Source: a virus. Taken from it: a stretch of 21,402 bases of DNA. This document shows, piece after piece, positions 11,692 to 20,763 of this stretch. Below the pieces are notes generated by a model, which was not told the DNA's origin, did not search any database, and saw only the letters and a list, made by a program, of their open reading frames with translations. Every line of letters starts with the position of its first letter. Within the stretch, counting starts at the first letter, position 1. The stretch lies in the IMG/VR virus record IMGVR_UViG_3300036859_000410, positions 1 to 21,402 of that record, one strand, 5' to 3'. Position numbers and translations under genes: made by a program.

Positions 11692-12153
11692 CTAACGCTC
11701 GATATCCACCTGCATCGCGGCCATCACATGGAGGACTGAGCGATAGACTGGTTGGTCCTCGCTTAGGTGCACCAACTTCCTGTCCAACTCATGTTTCATG
11801 TAATTCATCGCCTTCATCGTCCGACTCGATAGCCGGTTGCCGTGTCGAGTTACCCAGAACAGGGCCTCGATGTTGTCGGCCACCTTTACGATCTTCATCT
11901 CTCTTGATAAGGTGTGGAAGTCCGAGTGCCCTTTCGATGGAGAGGGAGCGTCGCCTGTATCGGCTTCGTCACCGTCGTGGGACAGGGCCAGAGACACGAC
12001 TGTGGCCGTGAACTCTGTATTGTCGTACACCAAAGCTATCTCTCGCGCTATCACGGCAACCCGATACGAATGCTCCGCTACACTCTGTTCTCGAAGCATG
12101 TCACATATGGTCCAACGTTTGACGTAGCTCAAGTGAAGAAGGTCGTTGAGCAT
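11692..12153 (-). CDS. datZ: HD-domain dATP triphosphohydrolase (DatZ-like)
   Basis: A 153-residue protein with GGGAGGAG a few bases upstream of ATG 12153. It matches the YfbR/DatZ branch of HD phosphohydrolases: R13-W14 near the N-terminus, SVAEHSYRVAVIA with metal ligand H28, SHDGDEADTGDAPSPSK with H59-D60, E63 and D68, and VKVADNIEA with D93. E. coli YfbR has the equivalent RTENVSEHS, HDASEVLTGDLPTPVK and VKQADA motifs. In 2-aminoadenine phages DatZ converts dATP to deoxyadenosine and triphosphate, removing the competitor of dZTP; the W14 position corresponds to a reported base-contact Trp. It is the last gene of the - strand operon, away from mazZ and purZ. A general 5'-deoxynucleotidase (YfbR-like) is the alternative; context favours DatZ. 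Confidence 0.8.
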   Translation of the reverse strand: MLNDLLHLSYVKRWTICDMLREQSVAEHSYRVAVIAREIALVYDNTEFTATVVSLALSHDGDEADTGDAPSPSKGHSDFHTLSREMKIVKVADNIEALFWVTRHGNRLSSRTMKAMNYMKHELDRKLVHLSEDQPVYRSVLHVMAAMQVDIER

Positions 12154-15156: not shown

Positions 15157-17634
15157 TCACTTTTCGAGGTCCCCCCATGTTGGCCCCTCTGCGCGGCTCG
15201 CCTCTATCGGTACTTTCAGCCGCACCGTGTCGGTCATGAAATTCTCTATAGTTTGGAGTATGTCCGGGTCGATATTCTCGTCCACTTCGAAAAGTAGTTC
15301 ATCGTGTATCTGGAGCAACGGTTCGATATGAACTCCCTGTTCCCACATGCACTCTAAGAACGGCCAGATACACTCCCCCATCGACTTTTTGATTACCCCC
15401 TGTGCTCCGGCTTGAATATCGTGGCTATGCGATTGGCGCAGGGCCTCTTCTTTTATCCACCAAATGTCTGACCACACGCCGGGAAGGTATCGGATTCGAC
15501 CCCACATATCGCGAACGTACCCGTACCGGCGAGCCTCTGTCCGCTTTTCCTCCATGAAGGCCCGGACGCCGGGGTATACATCGTCTAGGTACAGGGAGAT
15601 GGCGTCGTCGCACTTTTTCTCCGTCCAGTCCATAGCCCTAGCGAGGAACATTTGCCACAAGAGGCCCTTCCCTGTAATGCCGGTGATAACTCCAAATCCT
15701 ACCCGCTTTGCGGCATACCTCTGGACTGTGGTCACCGCCTCTGGGGGGACCTTGTACATCATAGCCCCGGTTGCTTGATGGATATCCTCGCCCTTGAGGA
15801 ACAGGTCTATCATCGTCGGGTCCTCGGAGCGGTGAGCCATCAGTCTCATTTCAATTTGATTAAGGTCGAGTGTGACAAGCTTGCGTCCGGGCGGCGCGAT
15901 GAATCCTTTGCGTATTTTTTTACCCAACTCCGTACGCGTCGGTATTGCGAGGAGGTTAGGGCTTGAAGCAGCAAGTCGTCCAGATGAGACTCGCGTAATG
16001 CGTAGATTGCACCGGATTCGACCGTCACTAGAGACAAGCCTTGGCAGCACGATACTGAAAGAGTTCTTGAGTTTAGACAATTCTCGATAATCACAGACCA
16101 TCCCAACGGCGGGGTGCTGAAATCGGATACTCTCAAGCGATTTGTCATCGGTGGCCTCCTCCCTCTTTACCTTCGTCAGCTTCGGTGCCGTTATCCCAAG
16201 CTGACCATACAGGAGCATGACCGTCTCTGGCGGAGAGTTCGGGTTGATTCGGGTGCCAGTTAAGTCCTCGATATCTTGGACTATTTGCTCCATACCCTCA
16301 TCGAACTCCCTCGACAGTTGGTTGAAGTAGCCTATGTCCACCGCCATTCCGTTTGACTGCATCCGCTCGACCATGGGAACGATGGCGTGGTCAATCTCCG
16401 ATACCTGTTCGAGGCCCATATCCTCAATTTTCTTCTTGAGGATGGGGTAGATACGGAGGGTGGCATCCGCGTCTCGCGCCGCATATTGAACCGCCTCGTC
16501 CATTGGAACGTGGAATATGTTCAATTCCGGCATATCACCCATGACCGTTATCACCGGTTCTTTCAACTCATCGGGCCAGTCATTCCAGCGCTTCCACACC
16601 ATCTCCGGCGCTATTTTCCCCTCACCGATATCCTTGAGGAGACGGTTCATGCGCTTGAAGATGGAGTGCTTTAGACCATCAGCCGGGGGCCAAATATCCT
16701 GAGCGGTAGCGTCACAGAGGTACCGAATGGCTTCATCCACGCTGTAGGGGGCGACAATCTCCTCGAACGAGTGCATGTTCATCCCGCAGTACCGTTTGGC
16801 GAGAGGTTTGAGGCCCTGAGGCTCAAGGCATAGGAGATAAGCGAGAATCATGGTGTCGGTGAATTGGCCGGAGCGGACGTGGATGCCCATTTTACGCAGA
16901 ATGCCGATATCATGGAGGCTATTGTGGAGAATCAGGCGGCCATCGAACCCAATCTCGGTGCCATCTGCTGCCGTCTCTACTGTCGCCTGTCCGGGAACAG
17001 TTGACCAGCTTAAGCCCCAAGGGGTGCCTCGGTAGCTCTCGGTATCGACAGCGATCGTTTTGGCCACGACTCCGTACTTCCCCGTCACCGCCTCAAGTCC
17101 TTTAACATATCTCGGCTCCGGGTGTGCGTCCTCCAGCTTCCTCGGCTCCAGCTTTCCCTTCGCTAGCATCCCAAGTTGCTCGAAGTCATAATTGATTTGG
17201 CCTTGCATCTCCGTTGAGTGCATACCAGCGGCAGGGTGGTAAACGGGCATGACAATGATACCGTCACGCCATTTCACTGGTAGAGCGTGGACAACTTCCA
17301 TATCAACGTCGCCAAGAAAGTAACGAGTAGCGTACCGGCCAACACTGACAATAATCCGAGGATGACAATCGTGAATTTCCTTTTCCAAGGTGGGTGCATC
17401 TCGCTTCATCTCCCAATCTTCAGGGTCTTTATCGCCGACAGCGTAATATTTGCAGAGATTGGTTACGTAAACGTCTTCGCGGTTGATACCGTTGCGGAAT
17501 AGGTAGCGGTTAAGTTCCTTACCGGCCTTGCCGACAAATGGACGGCCCCATCTATCCTCATCTTTCCCCGGCCTCTCGCCTACGAACATTATGTCGCAAG
17601 GTTGAGGCCCCGACCCCTTGATGAATCGAGCCAT
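15157..17634 (-). CDS. UDG-like / 3'-5' exonuclease / family A DNA polymerase fusion (DpoZ candidate)
   Basis: 825 residues. Residues 1-160 resemble a family 4-type uracil-DNA glycosylase: GERPGKDED (19-27), RPFVGKAG (31-38), TNLCKY (58-63), HPAAG (133-137); the paired iron-sulfur Cys are absent. Residues about 185-400 are a DnaQ-type exonuclease with D197-T-E199, HNSLHD (D242) and Y384-xxx-D388, plus an extra ~80 residues (about 297-378) before the last motif. Residues 400-825 are a family A polymerase: TRVSSGRLAASSPN (R553), motif A D590-LNQIEMRLMAH, motif B R639-xxx-K643-xxx-F647, motif C QIHDEL (D778). Where E. coli PolI has Tyr766, it has T651. No 5' nuclease domain. In Z phages the family A enzyme DpoZ prefers dZTP to dATP; that role is inferred from purZ, mazZ and datZ here. 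Polymerase very sure; DpoZ likely. Confidence 0.93.
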   Translation of the reverse strand: MARFIKGSGPQPCDIMFVGERPGKDEDRWGRPFVGKAGKELNRYLFRNGINREDVYVTNLCKYYAVGDKDPEDWEMKRDAPTLEKEIHDCHPRIIVSVGRYATRYFLGDVDMEVVHALPVKWRDGIIVMPVYHPAAGMHSTEMQGQINYDFEQLGMLAKGKLEPRKLEDAHPEPRYVKGLEAVTGKYGVVAKTIAVDTESYRGTPWGLSWSTVPGQATVETAADGTEIGFDGRLILHNSLHDIGILRKMGIHVRSGQFTDTMILAYLLCLEPQGLKPLAKRYCGMNMHSFEEIVAPYSVDEAIRYLCDATAQDIWPPADGLKHSIFKRMNRLLKDIGEGKIAPEMVWKRWNDWPDELKEPVITVMGDMPELNIFHVPMDEAVQYAARDADATLRIYPILKKKIEDMGLEQVSEIDHAIVPMVERMQSNGMAVDIGYFNQLSREFDEGMEQIVQDIEDLTGTRINPNSPPETVMLLYGQLGITAPKLTKVKREEATDDKSLESIRFQHPAVGMVCDYRELSKLKNSFSIVLPRLVSSDGRIRCNLRITRVSSGRLAASSPNLLAIPTRTELGKKIRKGFIAPPGRKLVTLDLNQIEMRLMAHRSEDPTMIDLFLKGEDIHQATGAMMYKVPPEAVTTVQRYAAKRVGFGVITGITGKGLLWQMFLARAMDWTEKKCDDAISLYLDDVYPGVRAFMEEKRTEARRYGYVRDMWGRIRYLPGVWSDIWWIKEEALRQSHSHDIQAGAQGVIKKSMGECIWPFLECMWEQGVHIEPLLQIHDELLFEVDENIDPDILQTIENFMTDTVRLKVPIEASRAEGPTWGDLEK

Positions 17635-18446: not shown

Positions 18447-19181
18447 TTATCCTCCGTGGATGGCTTTGTAGATTCGTTCAGCCATGACGCCGCCGATTCC
18501 CTCGATGGTAGCCCATTCTCTTTCGTCGGCCAGCACCATCTCCTCGATAGTCTTAAACTTTCGGGCTACCTCTTGCGACTTCCTCCAGCCGATTCCCGGC
18601 AATTCGGCGGCTACCCGGCGCACGATGGACGGGTGTACGAGCGCCGCCGCGTCCGCGCTCACCGTGCTTAGCGTCAGATGGCTATGATGCTCCTCCCAAT
18701 CTTTATGGTTGAACCACCCGTACAGATTGGCAATAATTCGGGCTGTCTCCGCTCGGCTCCCTGACCTCTTGACGTGAACGCCGCCCCTTAGCTCCATAGT
18801 CGTGAGCCAGCTATCGAAATCCCGGTACATGAAGCGGCGAGCGCCGATATGCGCTTCCTGTCGCTTTTTGCCCTTGGGAACCATCAGTATGCCAGTTTTA
18901 TAGTCGGCATTGTACACACCCTCCACCAGTAGCCAAGCGAACCGGCCATATTGCTCGCGCAGACCGGGGAGTTGGTGACCGGCGAACCTCCCGTCAACCA
19001 TACAGGCGAGGGCATCCTTAACCTTTTTGACCTCGATACCGACAAGAATTTGGCCCTCTGGCCCTGAGCCGCAGAAGGCAACGTCGCCATAGTCGAGGGT
19101 CACAACTTTGGTTTCGATGCGGAGTGAGGACAGATATCCGGCTAAGTCTACGCTGCCGGTTCTTCGGTCAACAAGTATCAC
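18447..19181 (-). CDS. ERCC4-type nuclease with C-terminal helix-hairpin-helix
   Basis: GTG 19181 overlaps the purZ stop as GTGA; the ORF can be extended to 19310 but then runs through purZ out of frame, and the ERCC4 fold starts at VILVDRR. The 244-residue protein has GDV (32-34), VGIEVKKVKDALACMVDGRF (a version of the ERKxxxD nuclease core: E50, K52, D56; the Arg is Val) and a DGRF/HQ element. The C-terminus has two helix-hairpin-helix motifs (ELPGIGWRKSQEVARKF and TIEGIGGVMAERIYKAI). XPF/Mus81-type nucleases cut branched DNA; phage homologues probably process recombination or replication forks. The central ~110 residues have no clear second domain. Structure-selective cleavage is a family inference. 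Confidence 0.8.
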   Translation of the reverse strand: MILVDRRTGSVDLAGYLSSLRIETKVVTLDYGDVAFCGSGPEGQILVGIEVKKVKDALACMVDGRFAGHQLPGLREQYGRFAWLLVEGVYNADYKTGILMVPKGKKRQEAHIGARRFMYRDFDSWLTTMELRGGVHVKRSGSRAETARIIANLYGWFNHKDWEEHHSHLTLSTVSADAAALVHPSIVRRVAAELPGIGWRKSQEVARKFKTIEEMVLADEREWATIEGIGGVMAERIYKAIHGG

Positions 19182-20455
19182 GGTATCAGGAAATTCTCGC
19201 GCTCTGGGCCAGTTGTAACCGCTGCAATCGGACAGCCGATTCGAGCAGCCACTCGCCCCAGTTTGTCCCTTTGCGCTTGCGAGAAGCCGTGCTTCATCAC
19301 CGACCCCCACGTCTCAGGATACCAGTGGTTGAAGAAGGTCAACACCGCATACGATGGTCGGTTTATCATTACTGCTCGCCTTGCCATTTCGCTGTCAAAC
19401 ATCGCCACGCGCCGCAGCTTACGCGTCACAGTGGTCAACTCGAATACTTTCTCCAACTCGGCCATACCCTCGTGGCTCATCAGTTTGATAGCCTCGGCAT
19501 TGAGTTCGCTTAGGGCCTCTTTATATGTCAATCTCTCTGTGATGCTCCAAGTGTGCATCTGGACGTTCGGGTTCCCATCGGCGTCACATGGTACGCTCCA
19601 ATTTTCCGACGCTATTTCAAGGCAACCCTCAAACTCCGTTATGGCCCAATCTTGAACTCGCGGTGGCATCCCGACCTCGGCCAGCTTCAAGTTTATCATC
19701 CGCGCCAATATTGGCCAGCTAATCTCTGAGGGCATCGGGCCGGAGTTACCGGCTACACGGATAGGGAACGTCCGGAGGCATAAGACGACCTCGTACCGGA
19801 GCGAGGGCGATAGACCAGCCTCAGCTATCCAAGTAGCGGCGTTACATTGTTTGTGTGTGGTGTAAGGGTAGGGGCCAAGATACAAATCGAGGGCGCTTCC
19901 CTGTGTCCCTTCGAGCAAAATCTGGCAACCGTTGTCGTACGCGTCGTTGAGGACACGAACGGTGTCGCAGATGTTCCAGTTATCGGTGTGGCTATAGTCC
20001 TTGAAATTGACGTAACCGCTCCCACGGTTGCGAATCTTGTCAACGATTGCCTCGCTGCACCCCTTCCCTGTCGCCCCTATTTTGTGGTGGCGACCCGATT
20101 CGGCAGACCGCATCGTGTGGGTTGGCAGGTGGAGGCCAGCACCCCGGTCAATGAACAACCGGTTACGGACCCTGAACCCGTCTGCCTCAATTTCATCACA
20201 TTCACGTTTGAGGATTTCGGGATGGATGAAAGCGCCGGGGCCAAGGACAAGGCGCGTGTCCGGATTCGTCCAGCCAACGGGGAGTTGCTGCATCTTGTAG
20301 ACCTTGCCGTCGTGGACAATGGTGTGCCCCGCATTGACCGCGCCGGTACGGACGGCAAAATCGACGCCGCGAATGTGGCCAAGGGCCTCGGCTACCATGC
20401 CCTTGCCCTCGCTCCCCCACTGACCGCCCTGTATCACGATTATAGGCTTGTGCAT
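19178..20455 (-). CDS. purZ: PurZ: dGMP-dependent adenylosuccinate synthetase homologue (Z-genome)
   Basis: 425 residues from ATG 20455, chosen over an upstream frame start because AAGGAGG lies just before it and the mazZ stop overlaps it (TAATG). PurA family throughout: GGQWGSEGKG (10-19, P-loop), NAGHT, IGATGKG, EGTQGSALDLYLGPYPYTT, a TTVTRKLRR aspartate-loop segment and TGPERENFLI near the end. The catalytic Asp of PurA (QWGDEGKG) is Ser15 here; that replacement is reported for PurZ, which joins dGMP and Asp with ATP to give 2-amino-2'-deoxyadenylosuccinate, processed by host PurB to dZMP. An inserted stretch of roughly 55 residues lies near the middle of the C-terminal half, before TTVT. 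Adjacent MazZ, polymerase and DatZ support this; an ordinary PurA or archaeal-like PurZ0 is the alternative. Confidence 0.9.
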   Translation of the reverse strand: MHKPIIVIQGGQWGSEGKGMVAEALGHIRGVDFAVRTGAVNAGHTIVHDGKVYKMQQLPVGWTNPDTRLVLGPGAFIHPEILKRECDEIEADGFRVRNRLFIDRGAGLHLPTHTMRSAESGRHHKIGATGKGCSEAIVDKIRNRGSGYVNFKDYSHTDNWNICDTVRVLNDAYDNGCQILLEGTQGSALDLYLGPYPYTTHKQCNAATWIAEAGLSPSLRYEVVLCLRTFPIRVAGNSGPMPSEISWPILARMINLKLAEVGMPPRVQDWAITEFEGCLEIASENWSVPCDADGNPNVQMHTWSITERLTYKEALSELNAEAIKLMSHEGMAELEKVFELTTVTRKLRRVAMFDSEMARRAVMINRPSYAVLTFFNHWYPETWGSVMKHGFSQAQRDKLGRVAARIGCPIAAVTTGPERENFLIP

Positions 20456-20763
20456 TACGTTTCCTCCTTGCCGTCTCGCAAAACTTGCAGCATGTGTAAG
20501 CACATAGCTGCGGTTTGCTCAAGCTCATGCACCAACATAGCGCTGTACGCTCGGTAATCAGGAGACTCCGGGTGCAAATTGTACTCGCCACCAGCAAATT
20601 TTCGGGCTCGCGTGAGGTCTACGGCAGCTTTCACCGCCTCGCCGCACTCCTCAGCTACCAGTAGCATCCCCCGCTGGACGCTCCGGGGGAACGGGCCGTG
20701 CTGCTGTTCGGCCCTTTCCATCTCCACCGCTACACGCCTTATTAGCTCTCCGCTTAGAACCAC
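20455..20763 (-). CDS. mazZ: MazG-like (d)NTP pyrophosphohydrolase (MazZ candidate)
   Basis: GTG 20763 is fixed by GGAGGAG (20768-20774) five bases upstream, although it lies 113 bases inside the preceding gene. The 102-residue protein has the MazG metal motif AEECGEAVKAAV (E38, E39, E42) and a second helix VHELEQTAAMCLHML, where the usual ExxD reads E80-LE-Q83; a Q-T/V-A-A-M pattern is what I recall from phage MazG-like proteins. HGPFPRS at about 22-28 matches the family's entry region. The family hydrolyses (d)NTP to (d)NMP and pyrophosphate. MazZ of Z phages converts dGTP to dGMP, supplying PurZ, whose start overlaps this stop (TAATG). General dNTP housekeeping is the alternative. Confidence 0.82.
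   Translation of the reverse strand: MVLSGELIRRVAVEMERAEQQHGPFPRSVQRGMLLVAEECGEAVKAAVDLTRARKFAGGEYNLHPESPDYRAYSAMLVHELEQTAAMCLHMLQVLRDGKEET
20461..20469 (-). promoter_or_regulatory. Strong ribosome-binding site of purZ
   Basis: The - strand reads AAGGAGGAA five bases before ATG 20455, lying within the last codons of mazZ. It settles the short purZ start and suggests efficient translation coupled to mazZ. Confidence 0.8.

What the first reader, a model, noticed from the sequence alone, without database searches (positions are those of the whole stretch)
15157..17634. Uracil-DNA glycosylase-like domain fused to the candidate Z polymerase
The polymerase begins with a family 4-type UDG fold (GERPGKDED ... 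HPAAG) without the usual paired Fe-S Cys, followed by exonuclease and PolA domains. SPO1-type phage polymerases have a comparable fusion, but I know of none in a Z pathway. The domain may read ahead for uracil, act as a docking module, or protect a genome with unusual base pairs. The GERPG and HPAAG motifs are intact enough that activity is possible.
Basis: partly seen in the sequence, partly recalled or inferred. Interest (0 to 1): 0.8.

Follow-up and report, generated by a model that had tools for sequence, protein, structure and literature searches.

The report
Glycosylase-fused polymerase in aminoadenine phages
A virus that probably swaps the DNA letter A for a modified letter (2-aminoadenine) copies its genome with a DNA polymerase that carries a built-in DNA-repair-like (uracil glycosylase) front end, a combination that recurs in uncultivated viruses and that I found in no described phage.

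Summary
The 825-residue polymerase (15157-17634, minus strand) has an N-terminal family-4-type UDG fold (Pfam UDG E 7e-26; model matches Sulfolobus family 4 UDG at Z 24.1, rmsd 1.6 A), then 3'-5' exonuclease and PolA domains. All four Fe-S cysteines are absent; the pocket residues (GERPG, N59, HPAAG) are kept. PurZ (Ser in place of PurA Asp13) and a DatZ-like HD protein are encoded nearby.

The fusion is not Z-specific. UDG-PolA polymerases form one clade, separate from both published DpoZ groups, and many members lack PurZ. But 18 IMG/VR contigs besides the window, plus three large ones, pair UDG-PolA with PurZ, in at least four PurZ lineages. None of ten isolate UDG-PolA records checked has PurZ, and none of four purZ isolates checked has a UDG.

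In two UDG-PolA subclades PurZ coincides with loss of the helix-O tyrosine (E. coli Y766): Thr in the window's group, Asn in the other. Both known DpoZ groups changed the same residue to Phe. This supports a third, UDG-fused, candidate Z polymerase. Most likely mechanism: a Z-adapted replicative polymerase carrying a working or at least uracil-binding UDG. Z incorporation and glycosylase activity are untested.

The parts
15157..17634 (-). UDG-exonuclease-PolA fusion polymerase (825 aa), candidate Z polymerase
17149..17634 (-). Family-4-type UDG domain (residues 1-162); GERPG at 17566-17580, TNLCK (N59) at 17449-17463, HPAAG at 17224-17238; no Fe-S cysteines
16420..17067 (-). 3'-5' exonuclease domain (about residues 190-405); DTE 17035-17046, HNSLHD 16909-16926, YAARDAD 16465-16485
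   Evidence: Pfam weak match plus structural match of residues 172-824 to the Klenow fragment (Z 42.3)
15160..16404 (-). PolA polymerase domain (residues 411-825); motif A LDLNQIEMR, motif C QIHDE
15682..15684 (-). Thr651, at the position of E. coli Pol I Tyr766 in helix O (Phe in both known DpoZ groups)
   Evidence: PMC8599892
19178..20503 (-). PurZ (2-aminoadenylosuccinate synthetase); GGQWGSEGKG with Ser at PurA Asp13; extra segment of about 75 aa
18447..19310 (-). ERCC4/XPF-type nuclease with HhH, conserved neighbour of UDG-PolA with or without PurZ
11692..12153 (-). DatZ-like HD phosphohydrolase
20455..20763 (-). Small protein next to purZ, MazG-like by eye only (no Pfam or NCBIfam match)
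   Evidence: homologues beside PurZ in L016, L025 and L098
20651..21217 (-). Possible nucleotide-modification-associated protein (weak DUF1599, phrog_1485)

Best explanation
The protein is the replicative family A polymerase of a phage whose DNA probably contains 2-aminoadenine (Z) in place of adenine. It descends from ordinary phage UDG-PolA polymerases, not from either known DpoZ group, and was adapted to Z DNA after purZ and datZ joined the locus, with the helix-O tyrosine replaced by threonine as one visible mark (inferred). Its N-terminal domain keeps the uracil pocket and most likely still binds and probably excises uracil from DNA near the replication point. The resulting gap would be repaired by the same polymerase and perhaps the adjacent XPF-type nuclease (inferred). 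Shown: domain architecture, fold (by prediction), intact pocket residues, missing Fe-S cysteines, co-occurrence with PurZ and DatZ, and phylogeny. Inferred: Z incorporation, uracil excision, coupling to the nuclease.
For: Fold and domains: (pLDDT 92, pTM 0.90). In the window's subclade (10 sequences) the pocket residues P22, G23, E26 and N59 are invariant, E20 and H133 are kept in 9 of 10. The UDG domain is as conserved as the polymerase domain (48-56% against 49-53% in the nearest relatives). Synteny orf21049 - PurZ - ERCC4 - UDG-PolA - DatZ in relatives. UDG-PolA forms one clade apart from phiVC8/SH-Ab and Theresita/Ghobes polymerases (joining the window's group to either is rejected, p-AU 9e-5 and 3e-7). 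Thr or Asn at the Y766 position in 15 of 19 PurZ-bearing UDG-PolA against 0 of 17 without PurZ found. F459 at this position is the only mutation shared by both known DpoZ groups (PMC8599892).
Against: The Thr/Asn association reflects only about two independent changes and cannot be significant by independent pairs. Three PurZ-bearing UDG-PolA keep Tyr (L027, L137, L139), and L111 has Phe with no PurZ found. One PurZ-bearing relative (L023) has a degenerate UDG pocket (GDYPG, FSPAAG), so catalysis is dispensable at least once. The protein misses the NCBIfam cut-offs for DpoZ_1 (130 of 500 bits), DpoZ_2 (38.8 of 350) and UDG_fam4 (114.6 of 125.3). The window is a 21.4 kb linear fragment, so the rest of the phage is unseen.
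Confidence: 0.55

Rival explanations
1. The UDG domain is a non-catalytic docking or processivity module, like the vaccinia D4 UDG in its polymerase complex. It holds DNA or partner proteins and its pocket is a relic.
For: pTM 0.90 for the whole chain suggests a defined placement of the UDG on the exonuclease-polymerase body. Several UDG-PolA have lost pocket residues while keeping the domain: EalM-132 (QDSPL), Serbin and Lebethron (GDAPN, GDNPN), L023, L111. In the split relatives the UDG stays joined to the first half of the exonuclease. The D4 comparison is from general knowledge.
Against: Pocket residues are invariant or 90% conserved in the window's subclade, and the UDG is no less conserved than the polymerase domain. 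Loss of pocket residues is the exception there (1 of 10).
Confidence: 0.3
2. The polymerase is an ordinary A-using UDG-PolA. Z enters the genome because DatZ removes dATP and PurZ supplies dZTP, as with the unselective PrimPol of cyanophage S-2L.
For: DatZ is present. UDG-PolA is common without PurZ. Three PurZ-bearing UDG-PolA keep Tyr at the 766 position. The S-2L precedent is in PMC8065100 (abstract).
Against: Loss of that Tyr in both PurZ-bearing subclades, at the residue changed in both known DpoZ groups. No DatZ homologue was found within about 10 kb of UDG-PolA in the second PurZ-bearing subclade.
Confidence: 0.3
3. The UDG domain has a Z-specific job, such as removing U opposite Z or bases arising from Z damage.
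For: UDG-PolA pairs with PurZ in at least four PurZ lineages.
Against: The same UDG-PolA type, with the same pocket, occurs without PurZ. Most PurZ contigs surveyed have a polymerase without UDG or no UDG match at all. No pocket residue separates PurZ-bearing from PurZ-lacking members.
Confidence: 0.1

Closest known systems
Phage UDG-PolA fusion polymerases (SPO1 gp31 type; Exiguobacterium phage EalM-132; Thermus phage phiLo, PDB 9qhs; jumbo phage PaBG, PMC7412058)
   Same: N-terminal UDG, then exonuclease and PolA; the members placed in the polymerase tree fall in the same clade
   Different: None of the ten isolate or named records checked has PurZ. The EalM-132 UDG lacks the GExPG motif, which the window keeps. 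The window lacks the Fe-S cysteines that many members keep.
DpoZ of phiVC8/SH-Ab 15497 and of Ghobes/Wayne-type phages
   Same: Family A polymerase in a purZ locus; helix-O tyrosine replaced
   Different: No UDG domain. Replacement is Phe there, Thr here. Separate branches of the tree; common grouping rejected. NCBIfam DpoZ cut-offs not met.
Family 4 uracil-DNA glycosylases (Thermus UDGa, Sulfolobus tokodaii UDG)
   Same: Fold (Z about 24), GExPG, Asn, HPAxx elements
   Different: No Fe-S cysteines; fused to a polymerase; just under the TIGR00758 cut-off
UdgX
   Same: Same fold, Z about 21-22
   Different: Weaker match than family 4 (77.5 bits against cut-off 189.95). The covalent-His loop motif was not tested.

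Membership tests
Family 4 UDG | UDG superfamily alpha/beta fold | tested here: met
   Z 24.1 to 4zbx, rmsd 1.6 A over 161 residues; Pfam E 7e-26
Family 4 UDG | Motifs GE(G/A)PG...E, TN, HPA | tested here: met
   GERPGKDED, TNLCK, HPAAG; Arg at the third residue of GExPG is unusual but shared by L018 and L022
Family 4 UDG | Four cysteines for the 4Fe-4S cluster | tested here: not met
   0 of 4 in the window
Family 4 UDG | Curated model TIGR00758 cut-off 125.3 bits | tested here: not met
   114.6 bits
Family 4 UDG | Excises uracil from DNA | not testable with these tools
   needs an assay
UDG-PolA fusion polymerases | UDG, exonuclease and PolA in one chain, in the same polymerase clade | tested here: met
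DpoZ | Encoded with PurZ | tested here: met
   PurZ at 19178-20503
DpoZ | Membership of the DpoZ-1 or DpoZ-2 clade, or an NCBIfam DpoZ model | tested here: not met
   AU test rejects both groupings; 130.3 of 500 and 38.8 of 350 bits
DpoZ | Phe at the helix-O Tyr position | tested here: not met
   Thr651: the tyrosine is lost, but not to Phe
DpoZ | Prefers dZTP over dATP | not testable with these tools
   needs an assay
PurZ | Ser in place of PurA Asp13 | tested here: met
   GGQWGSEGKG
PurZ | NCBIfam PurZ cut-off 300 bits | tested here: not met
   204.2 bits; extra segment of about 75 aa
UdgX | TIGR03914 cut-off 189.95 bits | tested here: not met
   77.5 bits

The most novel reading that the evidence does not exclude
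A third class of 2-aminoadenine polymerase arose more than once from UDG-PolA polymerases by changing the helix-O tyrosine to Thr or Asn, and its UDG domain actively guards Z-containing DNA during replication.
Probability: 0.2. Interest if true: 0.8.

Novelty: new variant of a known kind. Interest (0 to 1): 0.58.

Why it matters
How polymerases select Z over A is unresolved (PMC8599892). A separate lineage that changed the same helix-O residue in a different way gives a direct test of whether that residue matters. It also offers a natural polymerase-glycosylase fusion in a probable modified-DNA phage, with close relatives without PurZ as controls.

Tried and rejected
Single-sequence scan of viral contigs with the whole polymerase found nothing; an alignment was needed. 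Group I introns in the relatives with a gap between UDG and PolA ORFs: no Rfam match. A programmed -1 frameshift for the split relatives was considered, but each has an internal start codon with an upstream purine-rich site, so separate translation is simpler. A Z-specific UDG signature: no pocket residue separates PurZ-bearing from PurZ-lacking members. The UDG domain did not show in the whole-chain PDB fold comparison, whose list is filled by the polymerase domain, so residues 1-330 were folded separately.

Full report
What is there. The ORF at 15157-17634 (minus strand, 825 aa) is a fusion of a UDG domain (residues 1-162), a 3'-5' exonuclease (about 190-405) and a PolA polymerase (411-825). 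An AlphaFold2 model from 33 sequences has mean pLDDT 92.0 and pTM 0.90. Residues 172-824 match the Klenow fragment at Z 42.3. The UDG part, folded in a second job (residues 1-330, of which about 1-160 is confident), matches Sulfolobus tokodaii family 4 UDG at Z 24.1, rmsd 1.6 A over 161 residues, and Thermus UDG at 23.9. It also matches the phiLo phage polymerase 9qhs (Z 16.5).

UDG active site. The four Fe-S cysteines of family 4 are absent in the window and its subclade, but present in a second subclade and in L027. The pocket is kept: in ten sequences of the window's subclade P22, G23, E26 and N59 are invariant and E20 and H133 are kept in nine. The exception, L023, has GDYPG and FSPAAG. 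The UDG domain is as conserved as the polymerase domain. In other UDG-PolA the pocket is sometimes lost: SPO1-like EalM-132 has QDSPL, and Serbin and Lebethron have GDAPN and GDNPN.

Z pathway context. PurZ lies at 19178-20503 with the Ser that marks PurZ. A DatZ-like HD protein lies at 11692-12153. An ERCC4/XPF-type nuclease sits between PurZ and the polymerase. In relatives the order orf21049 - PurZ - ERCC4 - UDG-PolA - DatZ recurs. Contigs without PurZ keep orf21049 - ERCC4 - UDG-PolA. This suggests that PurZ and DatZ entered an older ERCC4/UDG-PolA block, although loss in the others is not excluded.

Survey. Most of the closest PurZ loci carried UDG with PolA next to purZ. A UDG-profile scan gave 37 loci. 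Checked over whole contigs, 18 virus contigs carry both UDG-PolA and PurZ, while several of 40-69 kb carry UDG-PolA without PurZ. Of 50 other PurZ records, three large ones have a UDG in an 826-902 aa ORF that is also a PolA. Ten isolate or named UDG-PolA records have no PurZ match, and four purZ isolates have no UDG match. SH-Ab 15497 was not in that UDG search; its polymerase is 625 aa with no UDG hit. Full-text searches found no paper that links the two.

Phylogeny. UDG-bearing polymerases form one side of one branch (98/97 support in the careful tree). Holding the window's group together with phiVC8/SH-Ab or with Theresita/Ghobes and their kin is rejected (p-AU 9.3e-5 and 3.4e-7). The PurZ tree puts the PurZ of the window's subclade, of the second subclade, of L056, of L057/L065 and of L027 in different places, so PurZ and UDG-PolA were probably joined at least four times; many inner branches of that tree are weakly supported.

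A shared mark. [quoted passage not shown] In my alignment that position is Thr in all eight PurZ-bearing polymerases of the window's subclade that could be aligned, Asn in all seven PurZ-bearing ones of the second, and Tyr in the isolate UDG-PolA aligned and in several PurZ-lacking contigs. Thr or Asn: 15 of 19 with PurZ, 0 of 17 without (seven fragments of unknown PurZ status left out, three of which have Asn). Exceptions: L027, L137 and L139 have PurZ and Tyr; L131 has PurZ and Phe; L111 (Phe) and L105, L118, L119 (Met) have no PurZ found. The Thr/Asn association rests on about two independent changes, so it is suggestive and not significant. The position was examined because the paper named it, not found by scanning all columns.

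How it likely works. Most likely a replicative polymerase adapted to Z, with an inherited UDG that still recognises and probably excises uracil. Glycosylase activity, Z preference and cooperation with the ERCC4 nuclease are inferred. A docking role for the UDG, or an unselective polymerase relying on DatZ, remain serious rivals.

Limits. The window is a linear 21.4 kb fragment. Absence of PurZ in incomplete contigs proves little. No host was identified. Tree support is SH-aLRT alone. The Fe-S cysteine positions, the catalytic roles of the pocket residues and the D4 analogy rest on general knowledge of these families.

Noticed in passing
L016:5930-8424, L019:6088-7547, L021:8608-11069, L022:1918-4331, L025:11896-14390: In five close relatives the polymerase is split into two overlapping ORFs, UDG plus exonuclease motifs I/II and then exonuclease motif III plus polymerase, the second in the -1 frame, with a conserved internal start (ATG/GTG/TTG-GCT-AR) and an upstream purine-rich site. 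The exonuclease site would be shared by two chains.
   Followed up: partly
L121:11543-14542: An insertion of roughly 300 aa in the polymerase near the T..GR motif reads like an intein; not tested.
   Followed up: no
window 19178-20503: PurZ has an extra segment of about 75 aa between the SGP..E.SW and TTVT elements compared with four phage PurZ; PurZ ORFs of close relatives are also long, 407-474 aa.
   Followed up: partly
window 18447-19310: An ERCC4/XPF-type nuclease gene is conserved beside UDG-PolA with or without PurZ.
   Followed up: partly
L105, L118, L119: Met at the helix-O Tyr766 position in UDG-PolA contigs of 41-57 kb with no PurZ found; perhaps another DNA modification.
   Followed up: no
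G078 (contig of L065): 95490-95900: A second UDG, in a separate 177-aa ORF, about 4.4 kb from the UDG-PolA in a PurZ-bearing 105 kb contig.
   Followed up: no
L002, L003, L005, L009: Several isolate or named UDG-PolA phages carry DNA-modification-type genes (HMase-like, 7-deazaguanine, thymidylate-synthase-like), hinting at a wider link between UDG-PolA and modified DNA.
   Followed up: no
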